Assembly: GCA_009602725.1 (NCBI GenBank)
Contig: WELB01000115.1
Span: 79,034 to 123,945, forward strand
Source: Spirogloea muscicola
Taxonomy: Eukaryota; Streptophyta; Zygnematophyceae; Spirogloeales; Spirogloeaceae
DNA: 44,912 nt
Direction: 5' to 3'
This document shows positions 12,183 through 35,607 of this stretch, piece by piece. Under the pieces are notes generated by a model that was not told where the DNA came from, made no database searches, and was given only the letters and a program-made list of their open reading frames with translations. Every line of letters begins with the position of its first letter. Positions within the stretch are counted from its first letter, which is position 1. A program made the translations under genes and the position numbers.

Positions 12183-12222
12183 GGCCGCCGACGACGCGGG
12201 CGGCGCGCCTCGCGCGGCGGCG

Positions 12223-12253
<31 letters not shown>

Positions 12254-12640: not shown

Positions 12641-13029
12641 ATTGTGTGAGCGGCCTCACCGATGGGCGGCCCACCACGCAGTTGACTTCAGCTCCCCGCC
12701 AGGTCGGATTGGCTGCCCGGCGTGGCGCCCGGGCAGCAGCTCCAGGCCCCCAGCAGCAGCGCCGCCGCCTGCAGCCCGGTCGAGCGACCCCGCAGGCGCG
12801 AGCTCCCTTCTCCCGCCACCGACCAGGCCTGCAAGCATGGGGCGCCCCATGCCCGAGCGGAGGCGGATCTGATGCATCATGATTACAGTCCTGGCCTGCT
12901 GGCGGCTGCGCCGGGCAATGCAGCTCAGGATTATGGCTGTCGTGGCCGTGATGATGCTGCACGGGGAAGCGGAGTGAGCCCCGCACCTCCTGTGGAGCTC
13001 CACACAGCCGACCGGCTGCCTCCAGCAGC

Positions 13030-14490
13030 TAAAGTCTCGACTGCGACAAGCAGGTCTCCGGAAGCGCATGAGAGTGTCGCGCAGCCTCTTCGACAAGCTG
13101 GTCCGGGCTCTCCGCGGCACGAACGAGCAGCGGAACACGAATTTCAGAGCACCTGTGCCGGTTGCAGCAGGGACTGCGGCCACGCTGCACCGCCTGGCAA
13201 CCGGATGCCATATTCTGGCAACAGCCGATCTTCTCGGAATAGCGGCGTGCACGTGTATTTCTGAGCTGATATTGCAAATTTAACGTTGATATTAGATAAT
13301 TGGCAGTGACTTCCGTGGCTCATGGTATAGAAATATGATGATCAAGCATTGTGCGTGCTAATCAGAACTAAAACAGTCATCTGAAGCTTCTATGCCCTTT
13401 TCATGGCTAAGCAAGAGATTTGTTGACACACTTGTCCAATACCTCTTTGTATCTCAAACCAAATAGTAGCATTCTTAGAGTCCTCTAACCGCTTGGACAC
13501 CTCATCTGCACTCTTTATTGATTTGCTAGTATCATCATTTAAGAGGTGCTGATCGCCATCAGAGACATCCTGCTGCCGGAGCAACTCAAGTGGCCGATGC
13601 ACAAGGAAACGGCCGGTATGGCCGCCAGTTTCCAGAAGCTCGCAGGCATCCTGTGCGTCATCGGCGCAGTCAACTGCTCGCCCATCCCTATCATTGCTCC
13701 AAGTGATCATGCCGCAGTGTCATACAACCGAAAAAGCCACCACTTCGTGGTCCTGCAGGTGGTCGCTGACGCAAAATAAAGAATCTGGCACTTCGACGGC
13801 GGCCGGTGCTGCAGCATGCACGACTCCACGGTCTTCTCGCAGAGCTGGATCGGCCTGGCGTGCGCAAGAGGGGAGCTTGGAGACTACTGTGCTGGATGCA
13901 CCCTATCGGCCGCGCCGATACACGTTGAGTCCTTACGAAGGACGCCGGGAGGGGTTGTCAGCCCTTCCAAAGGACTGGAACTACAGGCAGTCAAGGTCCA
14001 TAGTGGTGGCCGAGCACGCATTGGGACTCCTCAAGGGGCGGTTCAGGCTTCTTCAGAAGCGGATGAACGTCCCGCTCAAGACTGTGCCCCTCCATGTCGG
14101 GGCGTGCATCGTCTTGCACAACATGTGCAAGACATTGACGACAACGATGCGGTCGATGCCAACTTGATGCTAGACTGCAAGCCTGCGGACGAGGACAACA
14201 CCAACCACTCCAATGTCCAAGAAGCGCTCAAGGCGCTCAGAGGAGGGATGCACTCGTACGCGCACTGGATGCGCACCCTTGATGTACGTCGTTAGACGTG
14301 CTTGCCCCTGTGCTTGGTCATTTTGACCTTTGTTTGTTTCAAATAAACGCAAAATTTTCTTCATGCACAGGAAGACATGGCGCTGGACTCGTCAAAGTGT
14401 CACGATAGCATGGATTCAGATCTGAAAGATTCAGATCGATTTGACTCTTTGCAAGGAATCTGTGCAATATCGTAGGCAGTCAGAGCCCTG
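13030..14490 (+). pseudogene. PIF/Harbinger DDE transposase (HARBI1-like), broken
   Basis: Transposase of the DDE_Tnp_4 / HARBI1 family. The N-terminal part at 13065-13262 reads MRVSRSLFDKLV, NTNFRAPVPV and LHRLATG, a typical Harbinger helix-turn-helix region. After an apparent intron, 13546-13900 gives the core with IGAVN at 13660-13674, IPIIAPSD, a stop (TAA 13777-13779) and MHDSTVF. A frameshift near 13880 leads to SPYEGRR, VVAEHALGLLKGRF and ACIVLHNMC (13930-14125). The second Asp (13822-13824) and the Glu (14012-14014) are kept, but the first catalytic Asp is Asn (AAC, 13672-13674). A last exon after 14371 is suggested by GAAGACATGGCGCTGGACTC, conserved in the two other copies of this end. 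It cannot be active. Confidence 0.8.
14305..14345 (+). repeat. LINE tail-A-like segment in last transposase intron
   Basis: CGTGCTTGCCCCTGTGCTTG, then GTCATTTTGACCTTTGTTTG and TTTCAAATAAACGC, is clearly related to LINE tail A. It precedes the ATGCACAG acceptor of the last transposase exon. The segment is also present in the two inverted remnants (about 20960-21015 and 25330-25395), so it predates their separation. Confidence 0.6.
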
Positions 14491-14633
14491 CCGGCCCCTA
14501 CTACAGCTTATTGATCGTCCTGCTAAGCAGAATAATGAGATCCTGCGAACATTTTGGAAAAAAGCAGATCGGTTGACGGTCTGGGATGTATCTGTATATT
14601 TATGTCTTGCAACAAGATTGCTGCTGGCCCTTA

Positions 14634-15435
14634 CTACAGCTTCTCAATCAGCCTGCTGAGCAGGGACTTAATGTCTCGCAGACCCGCTTGGTGACGCTCT
14701 ACAAGTCCTACAAGTCGAGTCAGTGGCGCCTCTCCCGATTCGCCTGTGCGTTGGCCTGACTTGTCGAGGCCTCCTCTCTGGGCGCCATGCTCGGAAGATC
14801 GGCAAAGCAGCCGCCGCTGGCAAGATGTAATATACCACGATATGAGTTGATGATGTTGAACACCTCGGCCGCGCGGCCGCGAAGATGTAGTGCTGCCTCG
14901 CCGCGAAAGCGCCTCATCCTCTTCTCCTCCTTGTAGATTTCTTCGAGGAGCATGTACTTGGTTAGGCAGGCTCGAATGCCCTTGTCGAAGCTCGGAGCTG
15001 CTCGACAATCCTTGCGACAACTCGACGCCACTCAGCAACCGGGTGGCCTGAAGGAGACAAGAGGCGGTGAGTGGTTCAGTGACACTACTTGTCGCGGAAG
15101 AGCGTCCCGCAATGATTACGCAACAGTGCGGACCGGTGCTCACCTCGTCTGACCACGCCGAACTTCTTGGCCACATCGGCGGCTCCTTTAGCGTGTACAA
15201 GGGCGACCACCCACTCATGTCTCCAGATGGCCCCGCCGCCGTCGGCTGGGCTGCTGCTCGCGCCTTCACCACTGTCCACCGGGACTTCCAAGTTGAGGTC
15301 GGGGGTGCGCTGCATACCCTCGCGCGCCGGACTGCCCCCGCCGGCTGGCGCTGTCGGCGCTGGTGGCGCTGGCATCGGCGGCGGGGAGTTGCTGCCGCTG
15401 TCGGAGCCTGCGCCCGGCACGTCAGCTGCTGCCAT
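14634..15435 (-). pseudogene. Harbinger Myb/trihelix-like accessory protein, copy 1
   Basis: Second gene of the Harbinger element. Proteins of this class have a Myb/SANT or trihelix DNA-binding domain and help the transposase bind element ends. The start is ATG at 15433-15435 (MAAADVPGAG). Exon 1 includes DLNLEVP (15280-15300), an exact match to the plant EAR repression motif DLNxxP, then IWRHEWVVALVHA with paired Trp and VVRRG at a GTGAGC donor. Exon 2 starts after CTCCTTCAG near 15055 with HPVAEWRRVVARI; after a frameshift LTKYMLLEEIYKEEK and AEVFNIINSYRG follow. It lacks the intact C-terminal helix frame. Its 3' end overlaps or abuts the transposase 3' end. Confidence 0.65.
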
Positions 15436-15845
15436 GGCAGCCAGCAGCTGCAGCTGTCCCGCCGACTGCGCGGCCTCGGCGATCCGCTGGCGCTATGGCA
15501 GCGCTGCAGGCCAGAGCTGCCGGGAGGGGGGCGGGAGGGCGCGCCGCCTCGCTCCTGATCAGAAATGGATGCGGCTGCTGATCATGGAAGAGCTCCTGAT
15601 CAGGAGAGGGGGAAGGGCGCGGTGCGCATGGAATGAAAGGGAGGCCAATTCAAGCCAACACACTGTTCAGGCAGAGGGGGAGGAGGGAGGCGGGGGCGAA
15701 CGGGAGATTGGTCGAGCACCCCTGGGACTGCCGACGAGTAGGGGAATTGGGGGGCGGGGTGCCAGCTGTGCCTTTTCGGGCAGGCCGGGCAGCCTCTTGT
15801 GAGTTCAAAGGAGGCTGTCCGACTTATCCAAAGGAGGTGGACATC

Positions 15846-17640: not shown

Positions 17641-18060
17641 CACAGCTAGACACGAGACGACAGCTTCTCAACCAGCTTGCTGAGCAGGAACTTAATGTCC
17701 CGGAATTCCGCTTGCTGTTGCTCTACAAGTCCTACAAGTCGAGTTGATGGCGCCTCCAGCCGATTCGCCTGTGCCTCGGCCTCCGTCTCCCGCTGACTTG
17801 TAAAAGCCTCCTCTCTGAGCGCCATGCCCGGAACATCGGCAGAGCAGCTGCCGCTGTCAAGATGTACTGTAGTGCCCTACTATCTCTGATATACGTCGAC
17901 GACGTTGAAAGTCACGGCCGCTGTGTGGGGAGTTGAGGCCGCCTCGCCGCTCGTGCCCCTCGCCCAGGCGGCCTCCAGAAGGAAACTGCTGCCTTTGGTA
18001 CAGCCGTTAGCACAGCCGTCCTTGGCCGCCGCCGCCAGCTTCTAGTGAAGCTTCGCGGCA

Positions 18061-18097
<37 letters not shown>

Positions 18098-18120
18098 ATC
18101 CGGGAGGAGTGGAGGCGCCC
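17640..18120 (-). pseudogene. Chimeric module 1: ABCF1 exon 1 remnant + Myb-like C-terminus
   Basis: The minus strand encodes the Harbinger Myb-like C-terminus: ALREEAFTSQRE, then ARLVGLVEQQQAEFRDIKFL-type helix, then LLSKLVEKLSSRV stop at about 17650. Further upstream (17960-18060) is a decayed copy of the ABCF1 first exon (LHEKLAAAAKDGCANG-like), preceded by a GCC-triplet run as in ABCF1. Frameshifts and a stop near 17893 break it. This is the most decayed of the three chimeras. Confidence 0.55.
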
Positions 18121-18667
18121 TGGGACTGATGAAGATTGAGACTTTTAAGAAGAATCCGGCTGCTGATGTTACGGTTAATAGTGTATTTGATGAGTGATGG
18201 ACGGGCCTGAGTGGCCAATCAAAAGGAAATGAGAGAAAGACACTTTCAGCAGAAGGCGATGGCTGTAATCGACCAGCCCAGGAGAAAGAATGAAACAAGT
18301 ATGAAGGGCCCAGAAATGCGCTACAGCACACAGCGACCTAGGTGACCACTGGATGCTCATTGATATGATTAATTTACTAGTATATGATGGCTTTCTAATC
18401 CTCTCCACAGCTCTTCGGGGGTAGCGGCCCGCGACGGAGCCCGAGCAGAGGACACGTGGCGAGCCGTACATGTGGCCTCTACCGTGGCATTCTTGGAGCC
18501 GCCGCAGTGTGAAGTCCTCACCGATGGGCGGCCCCCCCCGCGCCGTTATCTTCTCACTGCTACGCTAAGCCGGTAAGGGCCGGGTTACCAGCGCGGGATC
18601 AAGCAGCTCCAGGCCCCAGCTGCAACGCCGTCTGCCTGCAGCCTGGTCGAGCGCCCTTGTCTTCTTG
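18121..18667. repeat. Copy of ABCF1/transposase upstream region
   Basis: Colinear by eye with 12250-12790. It has the TGATGAGTGATGG block, the AGGCGATGGCTGTAATCGACC block, CACAGCGACCTAGGTGACCA, a G-box at 18453-18458, CTCACCGATGGGCGGCC, and the AAGCAGCTCCAGGCCCCAGC / CCTGCAGCCTGGTCGAGCG block of the transposase 5' region. It then breaks off in a CTTCTTGT tandem (18657-18678) at the mitochondrial insertion. Confidence 0.65.
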
Positions 18668-19051: not shown

Positions 19052-19141
19052 CCTTGCAATGCCGCTTATTATATTTACCTTTTGGTAGCATTTTCTTAGA
19101 ATACCTAGCAAAAGATATGATGGTTGGTTTAGGTGCAAATA
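19052..19141 (+). pseudogene. nad5: nad5 internal fragment (mitochondrial origin)
   Basis: FGSIFLEYLAKDMMVGLGAN matches the conserved segment near the C-terminal third of NADH dehydrogenase subunit 5 (GSIF.GY..KDMM.GLG). The residues MPLIIFTF just before it lie one frame away, so one base was gained or lost. Only about 30 codons survive. Opposite orientation to nad2 suggests a rearranged or compact source. Confidence 0.7.
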
Positions 19142-19159
19142 TCGTCGGCCCACCGTTAA

Positions 19160-21654: not shown

Positions 21655-22258
21655 CAGCTTTTTCTCAATCCGCCTGCTGAGCAGGGACTTAAATGTCCTG
21701 GAAATCCGCTTGCTGTTGCTCTACAAGTCCTACAAGTCGAGTCAATATCGCCTCCAGCCGATTCAGCTGTGCGTAGGCCTGCTGACTTGTCGAGGCGTCC
21801 TCTCTGGGCGCCATGCTCGGAAAATCGGCAGAGCTGCCGCCGCTGTCAAGATCTGCTGTAGTGCCCCGACATCCCCGATATGAGTCGATGTTGTCGAAGT
21901 CCTCCGTCACTTTGCTGCAAAGAGTTGATGCCGCCTCGTCGCTCTTGCCCCTCTTCCAGAGGCCCTCCAGGTTGGAGCTGCTGCCGTTGGCGGAGCCGTC
22001 CTTGGCCGGCATCGCCGCAAGCTTCGGGTTCTTGTGCAGGTCCTTGGCGGGCGCCGCTTTCTTGGCGGCCGCCTTCTTCTTGCTCGCGTCCGACTCCAAG
22101 GCCTCCACCTGCGACTGCGGCGGCGGCGGCGGCTTCTTGCGCAGCTTCGCGGCGGCCGACGCCTTCTTGGCGACCCACTTCTTCTTGCTCGCGTCCGACA
22201 CCCGACAGCCTCTCGCCGCCGCGGCGGCGGCGGCGGCGATCAGGGAGGAGGGGACCAC
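21655..22258 (-). pseudogene. Chimeric module 2: duplicated ABCF1 exon 1 + Myb-like C-terminus
   Basis: A long open minus-strand frame. N-terminal half: [20 protein letters not shown], a Pro run, then a second copy [20 protein letters not shown] followed by [16 protein letters not shown], the exact continuation seen in ABCF1 exon 1. C-terminal half: DEAASTLCSK, DNIDSYRGCRG, MAPREDASTSQ and LTRLVGLVEQQQADFQDI, the Harbinger Myb-like C-terminus; the frame ends near 21689 and a shifted frame continues to 21655. The ABCF1-equivalent start codons are changed (CGG and TTG), so translation would need another start. It lacks ATPase domains and the Myb DNA-binding part. Confidence 0.7.
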
Positions 22259-22820
22259 GGGCTTCCGTGGATAGAGACCTTCAAGAAGAATTTTGGCTGC
22301 TGATGCTAAGCTTTAATTGAGTTATGTGTTTGATGAGTGATGGAGGGCCTGAGTGGCTCGTCAATTTCAAACGAGAGAAAGACTCTTTCAGTAGAGGGCG
22401 ATGGCTGTTATCGGCCAGCCCAGGAAAAAGAGTAGCGGTCTTCTGGCGCCTTCGTACTTGTTTCACTCTTCACAGCGCCAGAAAACCGCTAAAGTACACA
22501 GCGACCTAGGTGGCCACTGAGTGCTCATTTGAGTGACAATGAAGTTGAAATATGATGGCCTTCTAAGCCACTCCCCACCTCCCCTCCCATTTTTAAAAAT
22601 TCTTTCCCCCCCCTCCCACATTCACCCACCCTCCTCCTCCGGCATCTAGTCTGTCGGATCAGAGGCTCCTCACTCGTAACTACTGAGTGATTCATCCTCC
22701 CCTTGTTTTGACATAGCATCTTCAGGCCCCTTTGTAGCTGCTAAATGCTTGTAGTCCCCCCCGAACCATAGTCAATTTTTTTTGGGCTGGCTTTTCGCAG
22801 CCCTTGCCCCCACTCTGCTT
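22259..22820. repeat. Copy of ABCF1 upstream region, then repeat tails
   Basis: 22259-22600 repeats the ABCF1 upstream order: GGTTTGATGAGTGATGG-type block, GAGGGCGATGGCTGTTATCG, CCGCTAAAGTACACAGCGAC and CTAGGTGGCCACTGAGTGCT. The G-box part is missing. From about 22600 it gives way to C-rich runs, an ACTACTGAGTGATTCATCC LINE-tail signature (22680-22700) and a hairpin core (22781-22805). Confidence 0.6.
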
Positions 22821-23440
22821 TAAAACATTGCCAATCTAGGCTACACTCGACGTGCAGATGTGTTTCCGGCTGAGATGGGCTTGCCAGCTGCATATCTGTC
22901 GCTCTTGCGTTTGCAGCGAATTCTGGGCAGCTGTGCCGGTGGCAGCAAGGATTGCGGTCATGCTGCACCGCCTGGCAACCGCCCGGCAAATCAGGGCCAT
23001 GACCGATCTTCTTGGGATAGCGGCGTGCACAAGCTTGTAATTTACTATTGGAAGAATTAACGTTCATATTTGCTAACCGGGAGTGTCTACCATGGCTTTC
23101 AAACATAATCATAAACAACCAATCGTGCGTGCAAATCAAAGTCGGACGATGTGTCAAAGCTTCTTTTCCCCTTTCTAAGTTCAACTCGTTGACGAACTTG
23201 TTTAATAGCTCTTTGTTTTTCAAATCGATTAGTAGCAGAGAGTCCCTCTCATCGCTTGGACCCCCTCATCTGCACTCTTCATTAATTCTTTAGCATCCTC
23301 ATAGTAGAGGTGCTGATAGCCATCAGAGACACCTTGCTGCCGGATCAACTCAGGTGGCCGACGCACAAGGAGATGGCCGGCATGGCCGCCAAATTGCAGA
23401 AGCTCGCCGGCATCCCATACGTCATCGGCGCAGCGACGGC
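22821..23440 (+). pseudogene. Harbinger transposase remnant, copy 2
   Basis: 22930-23030 encodes AAVPVAARIAVMLHRLATAR and DLLGIAACTS, the N-terminal domain block seen at 13140-13255. 23310-23440 encodes MLIAIRDTLLPDQLRWP and AGIPYVIGAATART, the start of the DDE core, where the catalytic Asp position is lost. The 5' side begins in a LINE fragment (MGLPAAYLSLLR-like at 22875-22915, shared frame), so transposase and LINE sequences are joined there. Inactive. Confidence 0.65.
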
Positions 23441-23815
23441 TCGCACTTCCCTAACATCCTTTTACTTTCACTACGAGGCGGCCCCGGTGGCACGGGCATG
23501 CAGCCTCCAGAAGCGACGAGCGGCCCCCTCCCAGATGTTTAAGTGGGATGGTTGCACAGTATCAAGGGCTAATAGGCAGGAAAGAATGCAGTCCCTTGGC
23601 AACAGGTCCACCCCCACCCACCCCCCCCCCTCAGAAGTGGCACTCTCAATGAGGGCAAGGGCTGTGAAAAGCCAGCCCGAATTTTTTTTGACCAAGGTTC
23701 GAAGTGGCCAAAAACGCGTAGCAGCTACCAAAAAAGGGACCTGAAGAAGCTATTGCAGAACGGGGGGATCCCGTCGTCCACCCCCCCCCCTTTGGACAAT
23801 TTTCCCTTTAAGACC
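23441..23815. repeat. C-run-rich repeat tails
   Basis: It contains poly-C runs (23621-23632 and 23781-23790), a GCTGTGAAAAGCCAGCCCGA hairpin half near 23661-23680, and a TATCAAGGGCTAATAGGCAG word shared with 17228-17247. No gene is supported. Confidence 0.45.
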
Positions 23816-23817
23816 TA

Positions 23818-25045
23818 AGGAGGCTGCCCGGCCTGCCCGAAAAGGCACAGATGGCACCCCCCCCCGTCCAACTCCCCTCCTCGTCGGCAGACCCGGGGGA
23901 GCTTGACCAGCCTCCCCTTCGCCCCCCGCTCCTTCCTCCCCCTCTCTGCCTGCACAGTGTATTGGCTTGATTCGGCCTCCCTTTCAATGTTTTTCAATTT
24001 TTTTCATTCCATGCGCACCGCGCCCTTTCCCCTCTCCTGATCAGGAGCTCTTCCATGATCAGCAGCCGCATCCATTCCTGATCAGGAGCGAGGTGGCGCG
24101 GCCTCCCGCCCCCTCGGCAGCTCCGGCCTGCAGCGCTGTCATAGCGCCATCCTGATCGCCAAGGCCACGCAGTCGGCGGGACAGCTGCAGCTGTTGGCTC
24201 CCATGGCAGCAGCTGGCATGCCGGGCGCAGGCTGCGACAGCGCAGCGATTCCTCGCCGCCGATGCCAGCGCCAGCAGCGCCAACAGCGCCAGCTGGCGGG
24301 GGCACTCCGGCGCGCGGGGGTATGGAGCGCATCCCCGACCTCAACTTGGACGCCCAGGGGAGCCAGTGCTGGACAGTGGTGGAGGCGCAGACAGCAGCCC
24401 AGCCAACGACGGCGGGGGCATCTGGAGACATGAGTGGGTGGTCACTCTTGTACACGCTGCAGGAGCCGTTGATGTGGCCAAGAAGAGCGGCGGTGTCAGA
24501 CGAGGTGAGCACCGGTTTGCACTATTGCGTGATCGTTGCGGGACGGTCTTCCCCGGTGTCACTGATCACTCACCGCCTCTTGTCTCCTGCAGGCCAACAG
24601 CTTGCTGAGTGGGATCGAGTTTTCGCAACCCTTGTCGACAAGCATCCGAGCTTCGACAAGAACATTTTAGAATGCCTAACCAAGTACATGCGCCTCGAGG
24701 AATTCTACAAGGAGGAGAAGAGTTTGAGGAGCTTTCCCGGCGAGGCAGCATCAAGCCTCCGCGGCAGTGCGGCCGAAGTCTTCGACATCATGGATTCATA
24801 TCGGGGATATCAGGGCACTACTGCACATCTTGACAGCGCCGGCTGCTCTGCCGGTCTTCCGGGCATGGCGCCCAGACAGGAGGCCTCGACAAGTCAGCGG
24901 AAGAGGAAGGCCGACGCATAGGCGAATCGGGACGAGGCGCTATTGCCTCGACTTGTAGAATTTGCAGAGCAACACCAAGCGGATTTGCGGGACATAAAGT
25001 TCCTGCTCAGCAGGCTGATCGAGCTGATAGAGAAGCTGTAGTAAG
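23818..25045 (+). pseudogene. Harbinger Myb/trihelix-like accessory gene, copy 2
   Basis: Inverted counterpart of 14634-15845, including its upstream region from GGCTGCCCGGCCTGCCCG at 23821. Exon 1 has IPDLNLDAQG (EAR-like DLNL kept, the Pro lost). After a frameshift come GGGIWRHEWVVTLVHAAGAV and DVAKKSGGVRRG up to a GTGAGC donor at about 24504. Exon 2 follows CTCCTGCAG near 24593: QQLAEWDRVFATLVDKHPSF, LECLTKYMRLEEFYKEEK, AEVFDIMDSYRG, APRQEASTSQRKRKADA, one stop (24919-24921), then VEFAEQHQADLRDIKFLLSR and LIEKL stop near 25040. Apart from one frameshift and one stop the domain order is complete. The paired Trp helix and the C-terminal amphipathic helix suggest DNA binding plus oligomerisation. 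Confidence 0.7.
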
Positions 25046-25400
25046 GGCCGGCAGCAATCTCTCTAATTGATCGAGTTTGCTTTACAAATACTTCTCAGAC
25101 TATCAACCAATCTGCCTCTTCCCAAAATGTGCGCAGGATTTCCATATTCTGCTCAGCAGGATGATCAATAAGCTGTAGTAGGGGCCGCCAGGGCTCTGAC
25201 CGCCAACGGCTATGTACAAACTCCTCGCGAACAGTCAAATCAAATTCGGTTTGACACTTTCAAGTATCTTTGCATTCCATGCTATCGTCGCAGTCCGACG
25301 AGTCCACCAGCATCTCTTGCTGTGCATAAGAGAAAATTTCCGTGTGCTTGAAACAAACTAAGGTCAAATTGGCCAAGTACAGGGGCAAGCACGTCTAGTG
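25046..25400 (-). mobile_element. Harbinger transposase 3' end, copy 2 (inverted)
   Basis: Convergent with the Myb-like gene as in copy 1. The reverse complement gives the ATGCACAGCAAGAGATGCTG exon start, GACGATAGCATGGAATGC, TTGACTGTTCGCGAGGAG, CAGAGCCCTGGCGGCCCCTA, then CTACAGCTTATTGATCATCC. The tail-A-like intron piece lies at 25362-25395. Confidence 0.65.
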
Positions 25401-26013
25401 ACGTACATCACACACCCTACAACTTGACCCGCTCAGTACCAACGGGTCAACACATGAGGGTCGCTAGTCGATGCCTGAATACCAGATGGCAGATCCAAGC
25501 CCTTCTGCCACCAACTAGAGCTCGCCCAGCTTTGTGGTCCCATGCTGCTCGCTCATTAGCTCAGGTCTTCCGCACGCGCCTTTCCATTTCCCTCAAGCAA
25601 TGCATGCCCACGCCTTGCACCTGCACGCCGGCCGTGCTCTCGCTGCAACCTCTGGCTTTTGTCAGGGGCGTTGCTTTCCAGCTGCTAGTATTTCGAATTT
25701 GTGGCTCCTCACTCGGGGTTGTTGAGTGATTCATCCTACCCAAGTTCTGAGACAGCGCACTGGGCCGCTTTGCACCTTGTCAAGTGTTTTAGGGCTGGCC
25801 TTCCACAGCCCTTGCCCCCTTTGGGAGAGCAACTTCTCACTTTCTGGTGAAAAGCATCCTGAGCACGCTGCAAACAGGCCGACACCCGATGTCGCAAAAG
25901 AGAAAGGAATTTGCTCGCCCACAGAGGGTAGGGGCTGGGAGAGGCCAGCCCACAAAGTAGGACAAGGTCCAAAGAGCCAAAAGGTGCCGAAGGAATCAGA
26001 ATAAGCCACACAA
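25400..26013 (-). repeat. LINE 3' ends flanking chimeric module 3
   Basis: The order is the same as at 21020-21650: reversed ORF end (CTCAGTACCAACGGGTCAAC, 25430-25449), an ALHLHAGRALAATS block in the plus frame (25610-25660), the hairpin core (25791-25815), the SLLRHRVSACLQRAQD block on the minus strand (25840-25895), and the 3' UTR core GGGGCTGGGAGAGGCCAGCC (25930-25949). This is the second copy of a duplication of about 2 kb. Confidence 0.6.
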
Positions 26014-26601
26014 TTAGACACGAGACGACAGCTTCTCAATCAGCCTGATGAGCAGGAACTTAATGTCCCGGATATCCGCTTGCTGCTGCTCTAGAAGTCC
26101 TACAAGTCGAATCAATAGCTCCTCCCGATGCGCTTGTGCGTCGGCCTTCCTCTTCCGCTGACCTGTCGAGGCCTCCTTTCTAGGCGCCATGCCCGGAAGA
26201 TCGGCAGAGCTGCCGGCGCTGTCAAGATCTGATGTGGTGCCCTGACATCCCTGATAAAAGTCGATGATGTCGAAGACCTCCGTCGCTCTGATGCGAAGAG
26301 TTGATGCCGCCTCGTCACTCGTGCCCCTCTTCCGGGGGCCCTCCAGCTTGGAGCTACTGCCGTTGGCGGAGCCGTTTTTGGCCGGCATCGCCGCCATCTT
26401 CAACTTCTTGTGCAGCTTCTTAGCGGGCGCCGCCTTCTTGTCGGCCGCCTTCACCTTGCTCGCGTCCGACACTATGGCCGCCTCCCGCCACGGCGATGGC
26501 GGCGGCGACGGCGGCTTCTTGTGCAGCTTCGCGGCCGCCGCCGCCTTCTTGGCGACCGCCTTCTTCTTGCTCTCGTCCGACACCCGACCGCCTCTCGCCA
26601 C
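26014..26601 (-). pseudogene. Chimeric module 3: duplicated ABCF1 exon 1 + Myb-like C-terminus
   Basis: The best preserved chimera: one open minus-strand frame of about 195 codons. The ABCF1-derived part is present twice: [20 protein letters not shown], then IVSDASKVKAADKKAAPAKK followed by [16 protein letters not shown]. The Myb-like part follows without a break: DEAASTLRIRATEVFDIIDF, GMAPRKEASTGQRKRKADAQ and LIRLVGLLEQQQADIRDIKF, ending RLIEKLSSRV stop. Both ABCF1-equivalent starts are mutated (CGG, ATA). A basic Lys/Ala N-terminus joined to a coiled-coil-like C-terminus is a new arrangement; whether it is expressed is unknown. Confidence 0.75.
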
Positions 26602-27140
26602 CGCGGCGGCGGCGGCGGCGGCGTCGGCGGCGGCGATCCGGGAGGAGCGGAGGCGCCCTCGGGCTTCTGAAGAGAAAGACTTTTAAAGAAGGATTTTGGC
26701 TGCTGAGGAGAATAGTGTGTATCTGATGACTGATGAAGGGGCCTGAGCGGCCAATCAAAGAAATCTGAATGAGAGAAAGACTCTTCCAGTGAGGGCGATG
26801 GCTCTAATCGGCCAGCCCAGGAAAAAGAGTGAAACAAGTACGAAGGCGCCAGAAAAGCGCCAAAGCGCACAGCGACCTAGGTGGCCACTGGATTCTTATT
26901 TGAACAATAGTATCGTTTCATATGATGGCCTTATAAGCCACTTCCCACCTTCCTCGTCACCCATCCTCCATCCGGAGATAGCGGCCCTGGGGGGGCCCGA
27001 GCTGAGGACACGTGACGGGCCGCAGACGTGGCCTCCACCGTGGCGTTTCCAGTCGGAGCTGCCGCGATGTGAAGGCCGCATCGATGGGCGACCAACCACG
27101 CCGTTAACAACTTTGATTTGCCCGCTAGGCTGCCAAGGTC
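26602..27140. repeat. Copy of ABCF1/transposase upstream region
   Basis: Colinear with 12250-12720: GCGGCGATCCGGGAGGAGCG, GATGACTGATGAAGGGGCCT, GAGGGCGATGGCTCTAATCG, CACAGCGACCTAGGTGGCCA, a G-box-like CACGTG at 27009-27014, GTGGCCTCCACCGTGGC and ATCGATGGGCGACCAACCAC. Similarity fades near 27133, after which sequence looks unique. Confidence 0.65.
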
Positions 27141-27995
27141 CGCTGGCGGCCTGGCCATTCCGAGGCAAGGTCTTTCTCGGAGAGTCCACGAGTCGTCAAT
27201 AAGATCATGCAGTAAGGCAATCCGTGGACGACAATAGATAGCATGTGCTAATGTTGTTGCACCTTGTTGAGCCTTCTCATGGAGAGGAGTGAAGTGCATC
27301 CAAGCTACAGCTGAGGACGGATACCTGATAGTCAAAGCAGATGCCTTAAGGCATCACCTTCTAAGCAGAGCGGCACCGCTGTGCTTTACCTCCTACACCA
27401 AACAGCGTCATGAGATGGCATTGACGTTGGTATCATGAAAGGATCAGCATGCCGAGCTCATCTCAAACATGCACATTTTCTGGGCCTGTGTCACCCGGTG
27501 GAGCCTTCTATGTAGAGCGTCAGAGATATTTGCGAAATAGGCAGGTATGCACAGGTGCACATTGCCAAGAGCATAAGGCATCCAATGAAGCACTGGAATA
27601 CCATCACCTAATTTGCATCTCTAAAAGGGGTACTGCTCAATTGCCAACACTCGACGTCTTCATCCAAAACTTGCATCCCGCAAGATGAATTCAGCTCCTC
27701 AGTCGATGTTACGATCACACAACCTTGAACAATATGGACCATCTGACCAGCAGGCTACATTGTCCACCGTTGCTCTGAAGGAGATGGAAAGGGTTTTAAG
27801 AGGTGACTATGCGAGTTGTGCGGCCTCTTCCCATATCTGGCGCTGCGCTTGCTGCTTCTCTTTCTTACTCTGCTTCAGGGGCTGTCCAGAAGCTGACGTC
27901 TCCTTCTACACAAGCATGAAGCAGGTTGCTGTGTCAGCCTGGTCGTCTTGCCAATAGCCGATTGTCAATTTTGCACAGCGCGTATGATCAAGCAA
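27141..27995. other. No gene recognised
   Basis: This is largely unique sequence of moderate GC. Short frames at 27449-27688 and 27685-27957 (plus) show no motif. It may hold the 3' side of the small uncertain gene on the minus strand. Confidence 0.4.
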
Positions 27996-28449
27996 TTCCA
28001 AAGGCTATTAAGCGGCTTGCTACTTGCTTGATGCTCGTTCAGCATGCTTGACTGCAAAAAGTGGGGGTGTCGTCGAAAATACAGCTGCACTTGCGACAAG
28101 GAACTCCATGCTGTGGTACACCATGGCCTTACCTTCAGCGAGATCACATATACAGTGACCGCGGAGCAAGCCCAGCATTGAGTGCACTCCTGCACTTATG
28201 CCTTGCGAGCAATGCGGGACGGACAGCACCTCCGTTGACGAGCCGACGACATCGCATGGGCCCCATGCCAAGTCCTGAGCATACCTGGAAGTTGGCCTGG
28301 ACGAGCCTGTGGAGGCGTGCCAGCCGCCGGCTGCCGTGCCGGAGCAGCGGCGCGACTTGCAGCGCCAGCGCCTGCTGGGCCCGGAGCGCCTCCGCATGCG
28401 CCAGCTGCCGGGCTCTCACCACTGCCCGCGCGAGCGCGCCGCCGGTCAT
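27996..28449 (-). CDS. Possible small gene, unknown function
   Basis: I do not recognise it. The minus-strand ATG at 28447-28449 opens MTGGALARAVVRARQLAHAE, an Ala/Arg/Leu-rich, strongly helical 55-codon segment ending at a good donor (CAG then GTATGCTCAG, exon edge about 28285). Candidate downstream exons are 28180-28140 (acceptor GTGCAG, donor GTAAGG) and a last piece ending AVQN stop near 27996, after a TTTTTGCAG acceptor. The joined product is unconvincing in its later exons. It sits behind a GC-rich block that could be a promoter. It could instead be a chance frame. Confidence 0.25.
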
Positions 28450-28860
28450 GGCTGCCGCTCACCGCGCCCCGGCTGCTCGCTCGCTGAGGTAGCCAGAGCT
28501 CCTTCGTCGCAGGCGCGCGCCGCGCCTCGGCGTCGCCGCCGCTTCTTCTCAGCGCGCTGCTCCTACGCGGCGGCGCCGAGGGGCAGCGCCGGCGCAAGGC
28601 AAAGAGGCGGCCCGGTGGGACGACGCCAGAGGCGGCGCCGCGGAGGACTCCGGCGCCCGCAGCGCTTGCGGCGGCGGCGGAAGCGGNGGCTGCGGCGGCG
28701 GCGTTAGGCGTCAGCGGCGGCGGCGGGGGCGGCGGCGGTAACGGCGGCGGCGGGGGGTGTGGCGGGCGTGGCGGAGAGTGGGGGCTGACGGGGAGGGGTA
28801 ACGGGGACGCGCCACGTGGCGGGTGGCGGGGTTTGTCGGTGGCCTGCATGGCTGATCGGC
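28450..28860. other. GC-rich block with GGC repeats and one N
   Basis: It holds dense GGC/GCG triplets, an ambiguous base at 28687 (N) and a palindromic G-box, GCCACGTGGC, at 28811-28820. It resembles a CpG-rich promoter. Long frames through it are compositional artefacts. The N suggests an assembly or polishing problem at the triplet run. Confidence 0.4.
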
Positions 28861-29626
28861 CTGCAGCTCCAAACGCCCATGTCGGGCACGCTCCTTCGGT
28901 GAATTTTGCCGGCATGCAATTCTGCAGCTTGGCAGATTTAGGATACCAAGGCTTCCAATGCACATTTCGTGCTCACCTATACCTCTTCTTAATGCTGGAA
29001 TATAAAAGCTTTCCTTCTCCAAGATACTAGTCTTAGAGATTGGTGTTCTTGCCTTTTTGCGCCATCTGGCCCAGTCAGACCTTGTCCGTTCCTTCGGCTG
29101 GCCTCTCACAGCCACTGCTGTCATTTTGACAGCGCAGTTCTTTTCTTCAGCTCATATTGGCCGACGAGCAGGCTCCATGTGACGTTGATTCCCAGTCGTT
29201 TACGCGTCCGAGGACAAAGAAGGACGTGAGCGCTCAAGGAGAGGCAAGAGCCCCTAGGTTGGGTCGCAATATGGGTGAAAGCACGGCTAATGACTAAGAA
29301 AGTTGCCTAGCTTGCTGCTTAGCTCATCTACCGATGGGTGACCCTCACACGTGTAGTAAAGATCGTGTTACTGTTTGAGCGTCACAACTTTCGCATGAGC
29401 GTTCTTCAAACGAGTTGGACCAATCAATGGCTGGTCATCCTGACAACAGGATGATGGTCGGCGCAATGACATTGCTATGACACATGTCACTCATATTTGA
29501 AGATGGATTTGCTAACTTGGACAGAGACGGAATTGACAAGCTTATTCAAGTCCTGCAGAACCGAGATGCTAGAGCTATGCCTCCTGTCCAAGAGTGTCCG
29601 CGATCCATAGCCTGACCACGAGCAAG
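28861..29626. other. Intergenic, one LINE-tail scrap
   Basis: 29045-29110 carries GCGCCATCTGGCCC, CCTTGTCC and GGCTGGCCTCTCACAGCCAC, a diverged plus-strand hairpin core. The rest appears unique, with no gene seen. Confidence 0.4.
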
Positions 29627-29695
29627 TTACAGGCTCATACATGATGTCGCGATCCGATAACTCACAACACACAGGGCGTTGGGCATCGGCTTACA
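29627..29695 (-). terminator. TGTAA polyadenylation-type signals for ABCB28 gene
   Basis: TTACA (TGTAA on the gene strand) occurs at 29627-29631 and 29691-29695, 529-597 bases after the stop. Either would suit a chlorophyte 3' UTR of the length seen for the other genes. Confidence 0.45.
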
Positions 29696-30223
29696 TTGTC
29701 CTCAGGTGATGAAGTTGCTAAGCTTGTTCCTATGTATTTCTTGAAAGGCCAGACAGCGCACAAAGTACGGAAGTTTCAAACAGCCTCATCTCCCACCGCA
29801 CGCACCGCAGGATTTGCAGGACTGTGAGACAATAGTCCTACAGCTCCTGGCTGGCCATGCACTAGCAGCAGGTTGAAGGTGCGTCAAGGCGCTTTCCCCA
29901 CGAGTCTCCATTCGAAGTTGCTGACTCGGGAAAACTTTGGCATACATTGAAGTTCTCAATCAGTACCCTTTGAAAGTGGCGTATCTTGCTAGACTCGTGA
30001 TAACTGTGTTCAGCTGGCTCATCCTAGCTACTGCATCTTGCAAAGAAAAAGGATCTAGTTGATCAAAACCTTTAAGTCCTCTCCAAGTTGAACTTCTAAC
30101 ATCAGGTCGCCCACACCTCTATAAAACTAGCAGCCTTATGGGCCTCAAAATTGTATCTGGCGGAAGACCACCTAATGCAAAAGCTCAACCGCCTGCTAAG
30201 TTGTTGTACAAAGAGTTACGCAG

Positions 30224-33200
30224 CTACTCAAATGTCAACCGCTGGCTATGGACGAGATGGGCATAAGCCCCCTGTTTGCTAATTAATTGCGCATGCGATC
30301 CTAACTCAATGACCTCCCCATTCGAAAGGACAGCAATCTGATCGGCCGCCTGCACTGTGCTTAATCTGTGAGCGATGACAAGGGTGGTCCTCCCCTGAAA
30401 GTCCAAATGTGAACATGAATATCAGAGGTCACCATTACAAGTGACTATCTTATGTGCTCAAAATTGAATGAGTGCTACTCAAGTGGCAAACCTTGATGAT
30501 TGATGCAAGAAGCAAATGAGTGGACCTTCATGAGACGCTCCAGTGCATCTTGGACGAGTCGCTCGCTAAGGCTGTCGAGGGCGCTGGTGGCCTGCACATG
30601 CAGGCACAGCTATTAGTGTAGGCTTGGGCACAAGTCAACACATGACAAATGCATCTGAAGAGTACTTAAAGAATCCAGTCATAGTACACACTAGGCATCC
30701 GCATTGCAAGTGACCTCTTGGGTCCTACCTCATCCAGAATAAGTATCGGGGAGTTCTTCAAGAGGGCACGTGCAATGGCTACTCTCTGCCAATTCACCAA
30801 CAAAGCATGGGTCAGTGAAGCTTTTCTAGCAGGATCTGTCTGAAGCCTCTCTTAGCTGGCAACAAAAATTCGAGCAATAGCAGCATACTCACAAGTCAAC
30901 AGCCTGGTCAAGGCGAAGAGCTCAGAAGTACCTGCCGCTGACCGCCACTCAGCAGGCTCCCTCGCTCCCCCACTAGTGTGTCATAACTCTTCACAAGCAA
31001 ACATGCACATGCCGAACATCTGTCACAAAGTTGCCGAATCCCAAGAGGATGCTTAGAGCTTTCTATGCTCAAGGATATTTGCTCTGGCAGCTGTGCGACA
31101 GCAGTCACCGTTGTCACATGACTGACAAGGGTAAGTCTCTTAAATATGTACCTGGGGCAACCTCTCAACAAAATCGTGAGCATTGGCAGCCTTGGCAGCA
31201 GCGACTACATCTTCGTGCGAGACTTCGTCATTAGGCAAGCCATACGCTATGTTGTCTTTCACAGACATGGCAAAGAGCACCGGCTCCTGCATTTGGGCAC
31301 GACATTCCAGAAGTTATCAGCCAAGTGGGAATAGCTCGTTGAAATATACAAGTTCCTGCAACTAGGTTGCTAAGTCTATGACATGGTGTCTGGCAATGCA
31401 AGATAGGCAAAGGAAGGTGGCACACCTGGTTGACAAGCGAGACGGCTTTGGCCCACTCACTCTTGTCGAAGCTTCGGACGTCCCAGTTGGCCAGTGCAAT
31501 CCTACCTTCTACGGGCTGCAATAGCAGCTACCCAAAGTCACACAGACGGCTCCAACAAATAGATTCATGTACGGTGCAGAATCTCAGTTGCACATTATGG
31601 TAGCAATGTCCTGTATGTCATTGACAATGCACCTACCTCGTAAAAGCGGGACAGGAGCTGCACCACAGTGCTCTTGCCAGCCCCACTGGACCCCACCAGC
31701 GCCGTCACTGATCCAGCTTTTAACGTCAAATTGATGCCCTTAAGCACATAGGCATCCGGCCTCAAAGGGTACGCAAAATACACTCCTGCAACACTCGCAA
31801 CAGAGGTTAGTCAACAAGACAAAGTATTTCTGAAAACAGAATCTCAGCAATTGAGGGTGCCACTTGAGAAAGATGGAACCATAGTGGTCCTTACAATGGA
31901 CTTAAGAGTCTGCTCACCCTCAAGTGTGACGTCGCCAGTCCATGCAAGCTCGCAGACACTGCCCCCCTGCAGGCCCTTCTGGCTCCCAGCCAACTCCAAA
32001 GTTCTGTCTGATGAGGTTGGCTGACGCGTGGGCGGCTTGATGTCCTTGCAGCTCTCCAGCTCGCCCATGGCCTCTCTCGCCAGGCCGATTGCCAAGGAGT
32101 CGTCAAACTCAGCTGAGCCGGCAACGTTGTTGACTCGCCCAACTGCCGAAAGAACGCTCCGCAGGTCCGCGAGCGTGTTCACCAGCCCTTGCACCTGCCA
32201 CGCCTCCCCTCATCTTTGAGATTTTGACTGCCATGACCTGATTCATATCTTTGAAAACTGTCTCTAGTGCACTATGGATTGCTAAGCAACACAAAGAAGA
32301 GGACATTCCCATGGGTACATCAAGTGCAGGAAGACTGATGTCAGGCCTGAGGTGATAAGACCCATCACGTAAGCGATGAGATGGTCACAGCAATGAGCGT
32401 ACAGCGAATGTTAATGTGAATGTGTAGCCGATGAAGGACACCATGGTCCCAATAGGAAGCTCACCCTGCCAACAGGAGGACAAGAACCAGAAAAAGGGAG
32501 GAGGCTATGTCATCATAACTGCAGCTGATCATACATACACACGCCTGACAGGAGAAGGTAAAAAGACTGACAAAGGAGCCGCAATTACTCTCCAGTTTTC
32601 TGTTTCATCAGAAGACAAGCCCACAAGGAGAGCAGAAAGTGGGTAATACACAGGAGGCATACCGCCTTGACTTTTGAGCCACCGAGGTAGTACACCACAA
32701 GAAGGGACACATAGACGGCAATACGCGTCCAGCTCTCGTTGGCAGAACGCAGCCAGCTCAACATCGTCCCGCTCTGGCGGTATGCCTCGACCTGAGAACC
32801 AAACATGCTGTACTGACGCATCTCGCCACCGAATGACCGCACCTGCAAAGGGATCAAGGGGCTCAGATGGTGGACATGCTCTGGGCTGCAAGTAGAAACA
32901 ACAACTTACCCTAACCATAACCCTAAACCCTGACACCTAAACCCGAACACCTTGATGACAGACACATTGTATGAGCCTTCGTACCAATGACAGTCAAGAT
33001 CATGCACCGGCTCTTGGCAGCAAAAACATACAGTGCGGATTGCGCCAAATGTTTCATTCGCGCATTCGGAGATCCGAGCCTGTGCTGCGGCATGCGCCTT
33101 GAAGACGGGGGCAGTCGTGCGCTTATACACGGCTGCACCCAAGTACAGTCCACAAAGCTAGGCAGCATCATGTTCGATGCTACTCTCACCCCAACGCTTG

Positions 33201-35596
33201 GATTGCTCACACCATGCTGCGCGTTGTACCTAAACCTTACATACACAGTAGCTCAAGGTGCTCATTGTCGTCCCAAGGGCACAAATGAAGCATCTCACAG
33301 TTGTGAATCTATCTGACAAAAGGAGGTGTGTTCTCCTTGCAAGAGGCAGCAACATACCGACTCCAACTGACACTCCAAGTATGAGGAGGCCGAGAATAGG
33401 AGCAAGCTCTCTGGACAACGTGAAGAGGATAGCCAGGGTGCCCAGCACCTGGTTTGCATTCCATATCATGTACGAAGGGCGTTAGAAGGAGACGAAATTG
33501 CAGTAATCTCAGCCTTGGAGGTCAATAAGCCAAGTAACAACAGGCTGCTTGAGATTGTGATGCAAAGGATCTATGCTTGTTTCACATTAGCCTAAGCTGA
33601 TCCCTCACGCGTGTCCTTCAGCTGAGTCACAGCTGTGGTTGCTGGCCTTGACATATAACAGATTCTAGAGAGCATGTGCTTGACTTAAAATAATTTCGTT
33701 TGGTCGAGTTCCTGACAGATAACACAGGCCTTCATTAAGGTGACGGGCACTAGACTTGACCACCCATCTTGCAGATGAATCAGGTTAACCACTGTACCTC
33801 TGACAGAGCGCGAAAGCCACGATCTCGTGACACGTTTTCGCTGACAATCTTCTCTATGTATCCAAGCTCCGTAGACAGCAGTGCCTGCAGCTCACCGACC
33901 TGGTTCAAACCCACTGAGGATCGTCAGACGAATCTACAAGCTGAGTCAAGATCAAGCAGCCCATAGAGTCAAGCAGCGCCAATCATCAAGCTTGACACCT
34001 GAATGCAGGAGACCAAACCTGAATAAGCGTGACAACTGTAAGCTGAATGCTATATCAAACACAGCAACAAACAAGGCCTCTTCGACCCGCACATAAGGAC
34101 AAAAGAAGGGACTGATAATGCTCAAGGCAGAAAATCCCACCACCCATATGCAAGAGGTCTATCTGTAGAAATTGCAAACAAGCGAGCGCGAGGAGGGAGA
34201 GTGGAAGGGGAAGAGGGGGCTGGNGGAGGGGGAGGGAGAGGGGGGGGGAGGCGAGACGGGTACTGAAAGGGCCTGTGTAACTATCTGCCAAGCCATGCCC
34301 ACCTTGTGCTTATCGTAGAACTCCACCTGTTATTACACAGTCAATAACGTGCCAACATCAGTTGTCAAATTGTCTGATGACGTGCTATCTATGTTGAGCT
34401 GCTTCCCATTTATCCAAACCATTCTGTGAGGATTGATACCAACCAGATGCTACGGAGTGTGCAAAGAAGAGGCGAGACCAAGGAGAAGAAGGCTTACCTT
34501 CTGCACAAGCAAGCGCTGGAACACAGCAGTGCGAAGCTTGGCCATTACTGCCTCCCAGGTGGTACACATGGACGTGACGTACGCAACAGTGAAGATGGGC
34601 TCCATGACGTACACGATGGCGAGCGAGCCCAACAAGCGACTCAGGTTGCCCTGCCGCTTGCCAATGAGCGTCTCAAAGAACTGCCCTGCCGGAAAGGGCA
34701 AGCAGGATATGATAAGATAAAGGTTAATGTCATCCACTTAATGTCATCCACTTTAACACATTAGCGCGTATGCCAGGAGAATGGCCGATTGCCATGAGGG
34801 GGCAGCAAGATAGCAACAACAGCAACATAATTCTTTCACTATTCCACTAGAAAATGCAAGCTGACACTGCAGCCTGCAAGAAGCTGCCTCCGCTGTGGCC
34901 TTCTCACCAGAGAACTGAGGCATGACCAGAGTGCAGGAGGTGCCGCCGACAAGCGCGGCGATGGCGACCAGGATGCGTAGCCGCTGCGTGACCACAATCG
35001 CCATGATGCTACCCCACGTGAGCACTGCCACGCTGCGCGCCTGCCGTGCAGCCTCCCGCGCCTGTGGGGACGCCCTAAGTGGCTCTTTCTGCAAAGAGCG
35101 TGAATAAAAGGGCGTGTTAAGTCCTGAATTTGGGGGATGTGTTCAATCGGCATTCCTACAACAACACACTGACCTCCATGATTTAGCATGATGGAGATCA
35201 AGAACAATAAAATAACAACATAGGCAAAAGACAGCGAGCAGACGACAAGAACAGCGACGCCGTAGAGCCGCCATAGGTGTTGCTCACCAAGGGGGTGATG
35301 GGGTCCTGCGCCGGCTCGATGCTGTCGTCGCCTCGGTCGGCATCCCGCTGCAGCGTTGCCGGAGGGGCGATGTACGCGGCCCTCGGCGGGCCGACTGCGC
35401 GGCCGCCAGTTTGTCGGCGAGACCGGAGCTCCCCAGCTCCTGCTGCCCGCTTGGCCTTCTGCAGCTGCCTCGGCCAGACGAGCGCCAGGCGGCCAGGCCG
35501 AGACAGACTCGCGGTAGCTGCTGCCGTCCTTGGCGGAGCCGGGGCGTGGCAAGCCCATGTCAGCGGCATGGCTGCCGCCAGCGCAGGGACTGCCAT
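30224..35596 (-). CDS. ABCB28: ABC transporter B family member 28-like, probably plastid
   Basis: A half-size ABC exporter (TMD then NBD), closest by motif text to plant ABCB28; substrate unknown. Exons: 35288-35596, 34908-35088, 34498-34685, 34303-34326, 33798-33899, 33358-33448, 33032-33132, 32663-32842, 32403-32465, 31918-32194, 31637-31785, 31426-31515, 31152-31286, 30932-30988, 30729-30785, 30526-30591, 30224-30394. That is 2241 nt, 746 aa, all introns GT-AG. The Ala/Arg-rich start suggests a plastid transit peptide (inference). Membrane part about 120-415. Walker [10 protein letters not shown] is at 537-545, Q-loop Gln 585, signature LSGGQRQ 643-649, Walker B ILILDE 663-668 and H-loop His 699. 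FAYPLRPD (509-516) and FDKSEWAK are typical of this subfamily. Exon 4 is only 24 nt. No break is seen. Telomere-like repeats lie in the 5' leader and intron 7. Confidence 0.95.
32907..32951. repeat. Degenerate telomere-like repeat in ABCB28 intron 7
   Basis: TTACCCTAACCATAACCCTA, then AACCCTGACACCTAAACCC on the plus strand (split here for length): five or six imperfect CCCTAA/CCCTAAA units in an intron of 189 bp. The unit length of seven fits the plant/algal TTTAGGG telomere type. It is probably an interstitial telomeric sequence. Confidence 0.65.
34224..34224. other. Ambiguous base (N) in a G-rich run, ABCB28 intron 4
   Basis: The surrounding 34190-34260 is a GAGGGGG-rich low-complexity stretch with one N. 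It lies between exons 4 and 5 and does not affect the reading frame. Confidence 0.6.
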
Positions 35597-35607
35597 GGCT
35601 GCGGTTT

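What the first reader, a model, noticed from the sequence alone, without database searches (positions are those of the whole stretch)
21655..26601. Harbinger-linked capture of ABCF1 exon 1 into chimeric ORFs, donor and products side by side
The first exon of the intact ABCF1 gene (basic MVSDASKKK start through [16 protein letters not shown]) reappears in three modules (17640-18120, 21655-22258, 26014-26601), each fused in the same way to the C-terminal half of the Harbinger Myb-like protein. In two modules the exon piece is itself duplicated in tandem, and module 3 keeps a single open frame across the fusion. This resembles Pack-type transduplication but involves a PIF/Harbinger accessory gene. 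The donor is recognisable because the basic start is conserved in plant ABCF1. Expression is unknown; the original ATG codons are mutated in the two better-preserved modules.
Basis: partly seen in the sequence, partly recalled or inferred. Interest (0 to 1): 0.8.

Follow-up and report, generated by a model that had tools for sequence, protein, structure and literature searches.

The report
Chimeric gene family beside ABCF1
Next to a normal housekeeping gene of what is probably a green alga, the front end of that gene, including its promoter, was joined by what looks like a local DNA rearrangement to the tail of a neighbouring jumping gene's helper protein, and the hybrid was then copied many times and shows some signs of natural selection for protein change.

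Summary
In detail: the start of ABCF1 exon 1 recurs in three modules, joined at the same base to the tail of a Harbinger Myb-like gene. Two readings change. The repeated part is 45 codons plus the 5'UTR and about 500 bp of promoter. And it is probably not Pack-type capture. I find 17 fusion copies: 13 lie between ABCF1 and its upstream flank on the three ABCF1-bearing segments, two far off on the same contig C67, one on C347 (a 99.9% duplicate) and one on C45. Two C67 arrays and C121 keep the order fusion, transposase, ABCF1 promoter, as expected if a Harbinger beside ABCF1 was caught in a local duplication or deletion; the break shares 5 bp. The fusion beside the flank recurs at the same place in all three segments. 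Fusions lack the Myb DNA-binding domain and keep a predicted helix. In nine younger copies the Myb part has omega about 2.2 and no in-frame stop, against omega about 1 in unfused Myb copies; five intact copies alone are not significant. I judge it a Sdic-like chimeric family, possibly functional. Expression is untested and many copies are damaged.

The parts
12047..12186 (-). Part of ABCF1 exon 1 (ATG 12182-12180, to ..NLEG) that recurs in the fusions; the donor
   Evidence: ABC_tran domains further along the gene
12187..12693 (-). ABCF1 5'UTR and upstream (promoter) DNA, duplicated together with exon 1
12694..14175 (+). Harbinger, transposase side: outer end at about 12694, beside a TTAACGGCG-like site upstream of ABCF1; transposase head-to-head with ABCF1
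   Evidence: DDE_Tnp_4 E 4.8e-9 in 13553-14167; the end recurs in 29 of 43 listed matches on other contigs; junction alignment
14280..15796 (-). Harbinger Myb-like gene, tail-to-tail with the transposase
   Evidence: domain assigned through relatives
17667..18656 (-). Module 1: old, decayed fusion (MybC 17667-17946, exon remnant 18003-18068, promoter 18181-18533, Harbinger end to 18656)
21664..22583 (-). Module 2: MybC 21664-21938, exon piece twice (21964-22103, 22130-22202), promoter 22287-22583; first-ATG ORF of 107 codons
22917..23457 (+). Harbinger transposase remnant, head-to-head with module 2
23820..25023 (+). Full-length Myb-like gene, tail-to-tail with module 3
25024..26035 (+). Spacer (Mid 25024-25338, X 25539-26035) between the two convergent genes; lies in the other orientation relative to the fusion in some copies
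26014..26682 (-). Module 3 open frame (222 codons) across the fusion; most likely CDS 26397-26014 (127 aa, from a methionine just before MPAK)
26340..26676 (-). Module 3 exon pieces (26340-26482 and 26512-26676), in tandem
26690..27129 (-). Module 3 promoter copy, bordering upstream flank shared by the three segments, without Harbinger
27160..35600 (.). Upstream flank collinear with C121 and C67
   Evidence: 27160-29660 with C121 and 27282-27632 with C67; 29700-35600 with C121 and C67

Best explanation
The modules are copies of a chimeric gene born at the ABCF1 locus by local rearrangement, not by transposon capture. A PIF/Harbinger element lay about 500 bp upstream of the ABCF1 start, with its transposase head-to-head and its Myb-like gene in the same direction as ABCF1. 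A local duplication or deletion joined a GGAGG in ABCF1 exon 1 to a GGAGG in the Myb gene, in frame. One route is a tandem duplication of the stretch that corresponds to window 12047-14900; the other is duplication of the ABCF1 front end followed by a deletion. The result is a gene with the ABCF1 promoter, 5'UTR and leader followed by the Myb tail without its DNA-binding domain. It probably formed before the three ABCF1 segments separated. Later the exon piece was doubled, spacers between inverted Myb arms flipped, and copies multiplied, most on C67. The Myb tail has since changed under what looks like diversifying selection, with translation probably starting in most open copies at the MPAK methionine. 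Shown: anatomy, shared junction, shared Harbinger-promoter border, locations, selection statistics. Inferred: order of events, expression, protein function.
For: Promoter co-duplicated. Same junction in the copies aligned, with GGAGG at the break. Order fusion - Mid - reversed transposase - promoter - next fusion on C67:157749-163963, and the same arrangement mirrored on C67:2168-6105; on C121 fusion 108300-108733 - Mid - X - transposase - promoter - ABCF1 113205. ABCF1, module 1 and three C67 places share the Harbinger-promoter junction, while module 3, C121 and C67:150 kb show the same promoter without it. Three full-length ABCF1 matches in the genome, plus two 86-bp matches at 78% on C54 and C5, on collinear segments. 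Module 3, C121_108k and C67_153k stand next to the same flank. 13 of 17 copies lie between flank and ABCF1. Selection: omega 2.2 for 9 young copies, 2dlnL 12.2, and 1.04, 0.2 for 9 unfused Myb copies; pN/pS 1.71 against 0.88+-0.16 neutral, 0 of 9 rows with a stop against 4.5 expected.
Against: Four of 17 copies are not between flank and ABCF1: two at C67:2-6 kb, about 220 kb from that contig's ABCF1 and beyond the flank, one on C347 and one on C45. The unit next to ABCF1 in this window carries a full Myb gene, not a fusion, so later rearrangement must be assumed. The flank-side promoter copies lack the Harbinger that a simple tandem duplication would leave there. Gene conversion between segments could mimic a fusion older than their separation. 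A 5-bp microhomology in GC-rich DNA is weak evidence. The tree puts young and old fusions in two supported clades and does not show them to be sisters. For selection: only 7 of 17 copies are open in one frame from MPAK to the end (module 3, C121, C67 2.4k, 153k, its duplicate C347, 202k, and 162k with a 39-codon deletion). The five intact copies tested alone give 2dlnL 2.9, not significant. The whole fusion under GY+F3X4 gives 2dlnL 3.5. Supposedly noncoding Mid frames reach z 2.4, so the simulated null is somewhat narrow.
Confidence: 0.74

Rival explanations
1. Pack-type transduplication: Harbinger elements captured ABCF1 exon 1 between their ends and spread it.
For: Fusion units lie with transposase and Myb pieces of one Harbinger family. 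Four of 17 copies lie away from the ABCF1 arrays: C67 2-6 kb (two), C347, C45.
Against: 29 of 43 listed matches to the ABCF1 upstream DNA are Harbinger ends on other contigs without the promoter (40 of 266 candidates scored). 13 of 17 copies cluster at ABCF1. No fusion carries the Myb 5' half that leads to the second end of the element. Several copies contain the ABCF1 locus's own Harbinger-promoter junction. My end alignments and motif scans gave no TIR pair, but they did not bound every fusion.
Confidence: 0.1
2. Local rearrangement debris with no function: the array arose as described but is neutral, and the open frames are chance in GC-rich DNA.
For: 8 of 9 young copies lack the ABCF1 ATG in the piece next to the Myb part. 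10 of 17 copies are not open in one frame from MPAK to the end. The 5-copy intact subset is not significant, nor is the whole fusion under GY+F3X4. Unfused Myb copies behave neutrally.
Against: 0 of 9 young copies have a stop in the Myb part against 4.5 expected (reached in 1 of 200 simulations; 5 of 400), and pN/pS 1.71 in 0 of 200 and 0 of 400. 24 frames of flanking stretches stay within z -1.8 to 2.4 against 5.2. Leave-one-out 2dlnL 8.3 to 17.0.
Confidence: 0.42
3. The promoter and leader came from the transposon and were donated to ABCF1, not the other way round.
For: The promoter lies next to Harbinger sequence at several places.
Against: 29 of 43 listed matches cover only the Harbinger end and stop where the promoter begins. 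C121 ABCF1 carries exon 1 contiguous with the rest of the gene, and C67 does so from an N onward.
Confidence: 0.03

Closest known systems
Sdic gene cluster of Drosophila melanogaster (PMC3395120, passages read)
   Same: Chimera of two neighbouring genes made by duplication plus deletion; tandem array beside intact parents; a transposon copy carried with each repeat; regulatory DNA formed at the fusion; limited signs of selection
   Different: There both parents are host genes; here one parent is a transposon's accessory gene, its DNA-binding domain is removed, copies are much diverged, and the array exists at three related segments. Expression is shown for Sdic, not here
Pack-TYPE elements, including Pack-PIF (PMC8903248, passages read)
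   Same: Host coding DNA found with PIF/Harbinger sequence in a green-lineage genome
   Different: No two-ended element seen around the fusions, little dispersal, transposase present, fusion into the accessory gene
Co-domesticated PIF/Harbinger proteins (PMC9710019 and PMC4890758, listing and start of abstract only)
   Same: Harbinger proteins possibly put to host use
   Different: There, by recall, the Myb/MADF domain or the transposase is kept; here only the tail without DNA-binding domain is kept, under a host promoter
dm-W of Xenopus (PMC9250109, title and start of abstract only)
   Same: A chimeric gene made from a host gene part and DNA-transposon sequence in a polyploid
   Different: Noncoding transposon part and a known role in sex determination; by recall a single gene

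Membership tests
Pack-TYPE (Pack-PIF) element | Captured host DNA lies between two terminal inverted repeats with target-site duplication | tested here: inconclusive
   No fusion has the Myb 5' half on its own side; end alignments and motif scans gave no TIR pair, but the TIRs of this family were not resolved and not every fusion was bounded
Pack-TYPE (Pack-PIF) element | Copies dispersed away from the donor | tested here: not met
   13 of 17 copies lie between ABCF1 and its flank; the other four are two at C67 2-6 kb, C347 (99.9% duplicate of a C67 stretch) and C45
PIF/Harbinger element (the parent) | DDE_4-type transposase plus Myb/SANT-like protein | tested here: met
   DDE_Tnp_4 4.8e-9 in the window; Myb_DNA-bind_4 4e-6, above cut-off, in the relative on C48
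PIF/Harbinger element (the parent) | TIRs and 3-bp target-site duplication | tested here: inconclusive
   Transposase-side end lies beside TTAACGGCG, and module 3 has the site without the element. Myb-side terminus not defined
Sdic-like chimeric tandem family | Parents intact and adjacent; duplicated chimera in array | tested here: met
   Host parent and array adjacent on three segments; the transposon parent stands beside ABCF1 in the window as transposase plus full-length Myb region, intactness of its frames not shown
Sdic-like chimeric tandem family | Transcribed new gene | not testable with these tools
   no RNA data on hand
Domesticated transposon gene | Selection on the reading frame | tested here: inconclusive
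   omega about 2 and no stops in the Myb part of 9 young copies, but many damaged copies and no significant signal in 5 intact ones alone

The most novel reading that the evidence does not exclude
The fusions are a host anti-transposon gene family. ABCF1's promoter drives a Myb tail that keeps a predicted long helix but has lost the DNA-binding domain, so it traps the Harbinger transposase or full Myb protein in dead complexes (a dominant negative). Amplification and omega near 2 are the marks of an arms race with the Harbinger family still spread through the genome.
Probability: 0.14. Interest if true: 0.87.

Novelty: new variant of a known kind. Interest (0 to 1): 0.55.

Why it matters
It shows, with donor, transposon, likely intermediates and products side by side at three related segments, how a gene can be made from a host promoter and leader plus the tail of a transposon's accessory protein by local rearrangement, where capture would be the usual guess. 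If the selection signal is real, it is a multigene family built from a transposon protein stripped of its DNA-binding domain, and a direct way to test whether a host can turn a transposon's own helper against it.

Tried and rejected
Pack-type capture: thought unlikely on location, absence of the Myb 5' half in the fusions, and co-duplication of the ABCF1 promoter with its Harbinger border. Chance similarity of Lys/Ala-rich sequence: rejected. Terminal inverted repeats of the Harbinger family: motif scans and end alignments gave no clean pair. Overlapping or antisense frame as the cause of the high pN/pS: fwd 2 and rev 2 are low (0.63, 0.57), but 9 of 9 and 6 of 9 rows have stops there, so thought not to be coding, though the rev 2 stop count (6 against 8.8 expected, reached in 1 of 200) is itself odd, and rev 0 and rev 1 are raised too (z 2.3, 2.1). 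Structure of the module 3 protein: low confidence overall (pLDDT 56.4, four sequences); only the last helix, 174-221, is good (block means 83-94 for residues 181-220); not taken to fold search. A first genome search with a short pattern found nothing. Literature: searches for Harbinger with gene capture/transduplication/Myb, with Myb-like/transposase/host gene/fusion/promoter, with Myb-like/dominant negative/domesticated, and Spirogloea with Harbinger listed no report of this; only this open-licence library was searched, and listings were judged by title and abstract.

The count is 13 of 17, so I lowered the best explanation from 0.78 to 0.74 and raised the Pack-type rival from 0.08 to 0.10. 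The count of open copies was mended from 5 to 7 of 17.

Rows dropped: dN/dS used 13 of 17 fusion copies (C347 as duplicate; 162k, 171k and 187k for a long deletion, an internal repeat and truncation), of which 9 are the young set; the tree used 14 of 17. The two X stretches used as controls overlap by about 80 columns, and X, Mid and promoter are assumed, not shown, to be noncoding. One search timed out and was redone without fuzzy regex. One search failed on its last set, which was redone. One search's codon fits failed on threads and were redone. One search printed no omega values, only 2dlnL. One search was an incomplete submission.
Full report
OBSERVATION. The window is G000:C115:79034-123945 of a 153-Mb genome in 471 contigs. 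ABCF1 lies on the minus strand (ABC_tran in two ORFs), ATG at 12182. Its first 45 codons recur at modules 2 and 3 at 92% and 89% over about 140 bp, and module 1 keeps a remnant. The homology does not stop at the ATG: it runs through the 5'UTR and upstream DNA to donor position 12703 (module 3) and 12789 (module 1). The junction is the same in all three modules and in the other copies aligned; donor and Myb sequence share GGAGG there. It lies inside exon 1, not at its end. Modules 2 and 3 have the exon piece twice.

WHOLE GENOME. The 140-bp exon piece has 29 listed matches (19 of 19 candidates scored): 3 in ABCF1 genes and 26 in 16 fusion copies, on C115, C121, C67, C347 and C45; module 1 was too worn to be listed and makes 17. 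A 2.7-kb piece of the ABCF1 gene body finds three full-length loci, C115, C121 and C67, at 89-90% for the other two, and two 86-bp matches at 78% on C54 and C5 that I did not follow. The flank 29700-35600 is collinear on C67 and C121, as is 27160-29660 on C121. So there are three related segments of the order flank - array - ABCF1. Of the 17 fusion copies, 13 lie between flank and ABCF1: three on C115, one on C121, nine on C67. The other four are two at C67:2-6 kb, about 220 kb from that contig's ABCF1 and beyond the flank, one on C347 and one on C45. C347 carries a 2,024-bp stretch 99.9% identical to C67 153-155 kb with other flanks and an N near its left break, either very recent or an assembly fault.

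ANATOMY. In the window a Harbinger stands upstream of ABCF1: transposase on + (DDE_Tnp_4), Myb-like gene on -, tail-to-tail. A search with the ABCF1 upstream DNA lists 43 matches (40 of 266 candidates scored); 29 are on other contigs and cover only the first 97-100 bases, the Harbinger end at about 12694, without the promoter. On C67:157749-163963 two units in a row read promoter - exon - MybC - Mid - reversed transposase; C67:2168-6105 shows the mirrored order with two fusions; on C121 one fusion is followed by Mid, X, reversed transposase, promoter and ABCF1. ABCF1, module 1 and three C67 places share the Harbinger-promoter junction; module 3, the C121 fusion and C67:150 kb have the same promoter joined instead to the upstream flank. 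The fusions beside that flank are therefore probably the same fusion in three segments, older than their separation, unless sequence passed between segments later. Other copies stand tail-to-tail with a full or partial Myb gene, with the spacer Mid-X in either orientation, as expected from inversion between the inverted Myb arms.

MECHANISM. Tandem duplication of the stretch corresponding to 12047-14900 would make exactly this fusion, in frame, and place transposase, promoter and ABCF1 after it. It needs the distal Harbinger to have left later, since the flank-side promoters lack it. Alternatively the ABCF1 front end was duplicated first, Harbinger inserted between, and a deletion between the two GGAGG made the fusion. 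I cannot choose between these; both are local and both differ from capture. The four outlying copies need a further move or breakage in either case.

PROTEIN. The single Myb ORFs scanned have no Myb hit in Pfam; joined exons from the copy on C48 match Myb_DNA-bind_4 (PF13837) at E 4e-6, from C84 at 1.7e-5 (below cut-off), and from C67 not at all. The matched stretch runs to the residues at the fusion point, so the fusions have lost that domain. In 8 of 17 copies the first ATG in the stretch examined opens a frame of 107 to at least 181 codons across the junction, in 5 at ABCF1's internal MPAK and in module 3 just before it. A model of the module 3 protein is poor except for a long C-terminal helix (residues 174-221), which fits a coiled coil. 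Harbinger Myb-like proteins are reported to bind the transposase, enter the nucleus with it and bind the element ends (passage in PMC9179366); whether the tail does any of this is unknown.

SELECTION. Nine copies of the younger clade (100/97 support), 93 codons of the Myb part: pN/pS 1.71 against 0.88+-0.16 in neutral simulations (0 of 200), and 0 of 9 rows with a stop against 4.5 expected (1 of 200); a separate run gave 0 of 400 and 5 of 400. With the exon part included pN/pS is 1.41 against 0.90 (1 of 400). Nine unfused Myb copies: 0.82 against 0.85, and 2 of 9 with stops. Codon model: omega 2.2, 2dlnL 12.2 (young); 2.0, 18.1 (13 fusions); 1.04, 0.2 (unfused). Leave-one-out 8.3-17.0; seven copies without frameshift in the Myb part 6.7; five intact-frame copies 2.9. 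Controls from flanking stretches: z from -1.8 to 2.4 in 24 frames, against 5.2. The exon part alone looks constrained in counts (pooled pN/pS 0.60, 17 codons), and the whole fusion with GY+F3X4 gives only 2dlnL 3.5. I looked at the Myb part after seeing the first counts, so these are not clean p values. The contrast between fused and unfused copies is the strongest point; the damaged copies (10 of 17 not open in one frame from MPAK to the end) are the weakest.

VERDICT. A mostly local, Sdic-like chimeric gene family, new in its parents and in the loss of the DNA-binding domain; probably ordinary in mechanism, possibly functional. The decoy reading is a hypothesis, not a result.

Noticed in passing
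L021 (C67:171512-172164): One fusion copy carries an in-frame internal tandem repeat of about 180 bp (60 codons) of the Myb tail.
   Followed up: partly
L027 (C347:31475-33498): 2,024 bp at 99.9% identity to C67 153-155 kb between different flanks, with an N near the left break: recent duplication or assembly fault.
   Followed up: partly
L019, L036, L039: Myb-like genes on C67, C48, C84: Three copies hold an in-frame stop at the same place before ..RLLSPSG, which reads like a short intron with a pyrimidine-rich 3' end.
   Followed up: partly
window 18982-20567: Long overlapping frames between modules 1 and 2 with no Pfam hit at E 0.01; they have the look of a retroelement remnant.
   Followed up: no
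L034 (C45:380488-382886): The only fusion copy on a contig without a full ABCF1 match, apart from C347: promoter and exon remnant, MybC, then a Myb gene inverted.
   Followed up: partly
L028 (C67:2168-6105): Two old-type fusions with a transposase between them lie at the start of contig C67, about 220 kb from its ABCF1 and beyond the shared flank.
   Followed up: partly
L029 (C67:224000-224230): The C67 ABCF1 exon 1 lacks its first codons at a single N, probably an assembly gap.
   Followed up: no
C67_173k and C67_182k fusions (L021, L022): Both have a 1-nt deletion at the C-run right after the fusion point; homopolymer sequencing error is possible.
   Followed up: no
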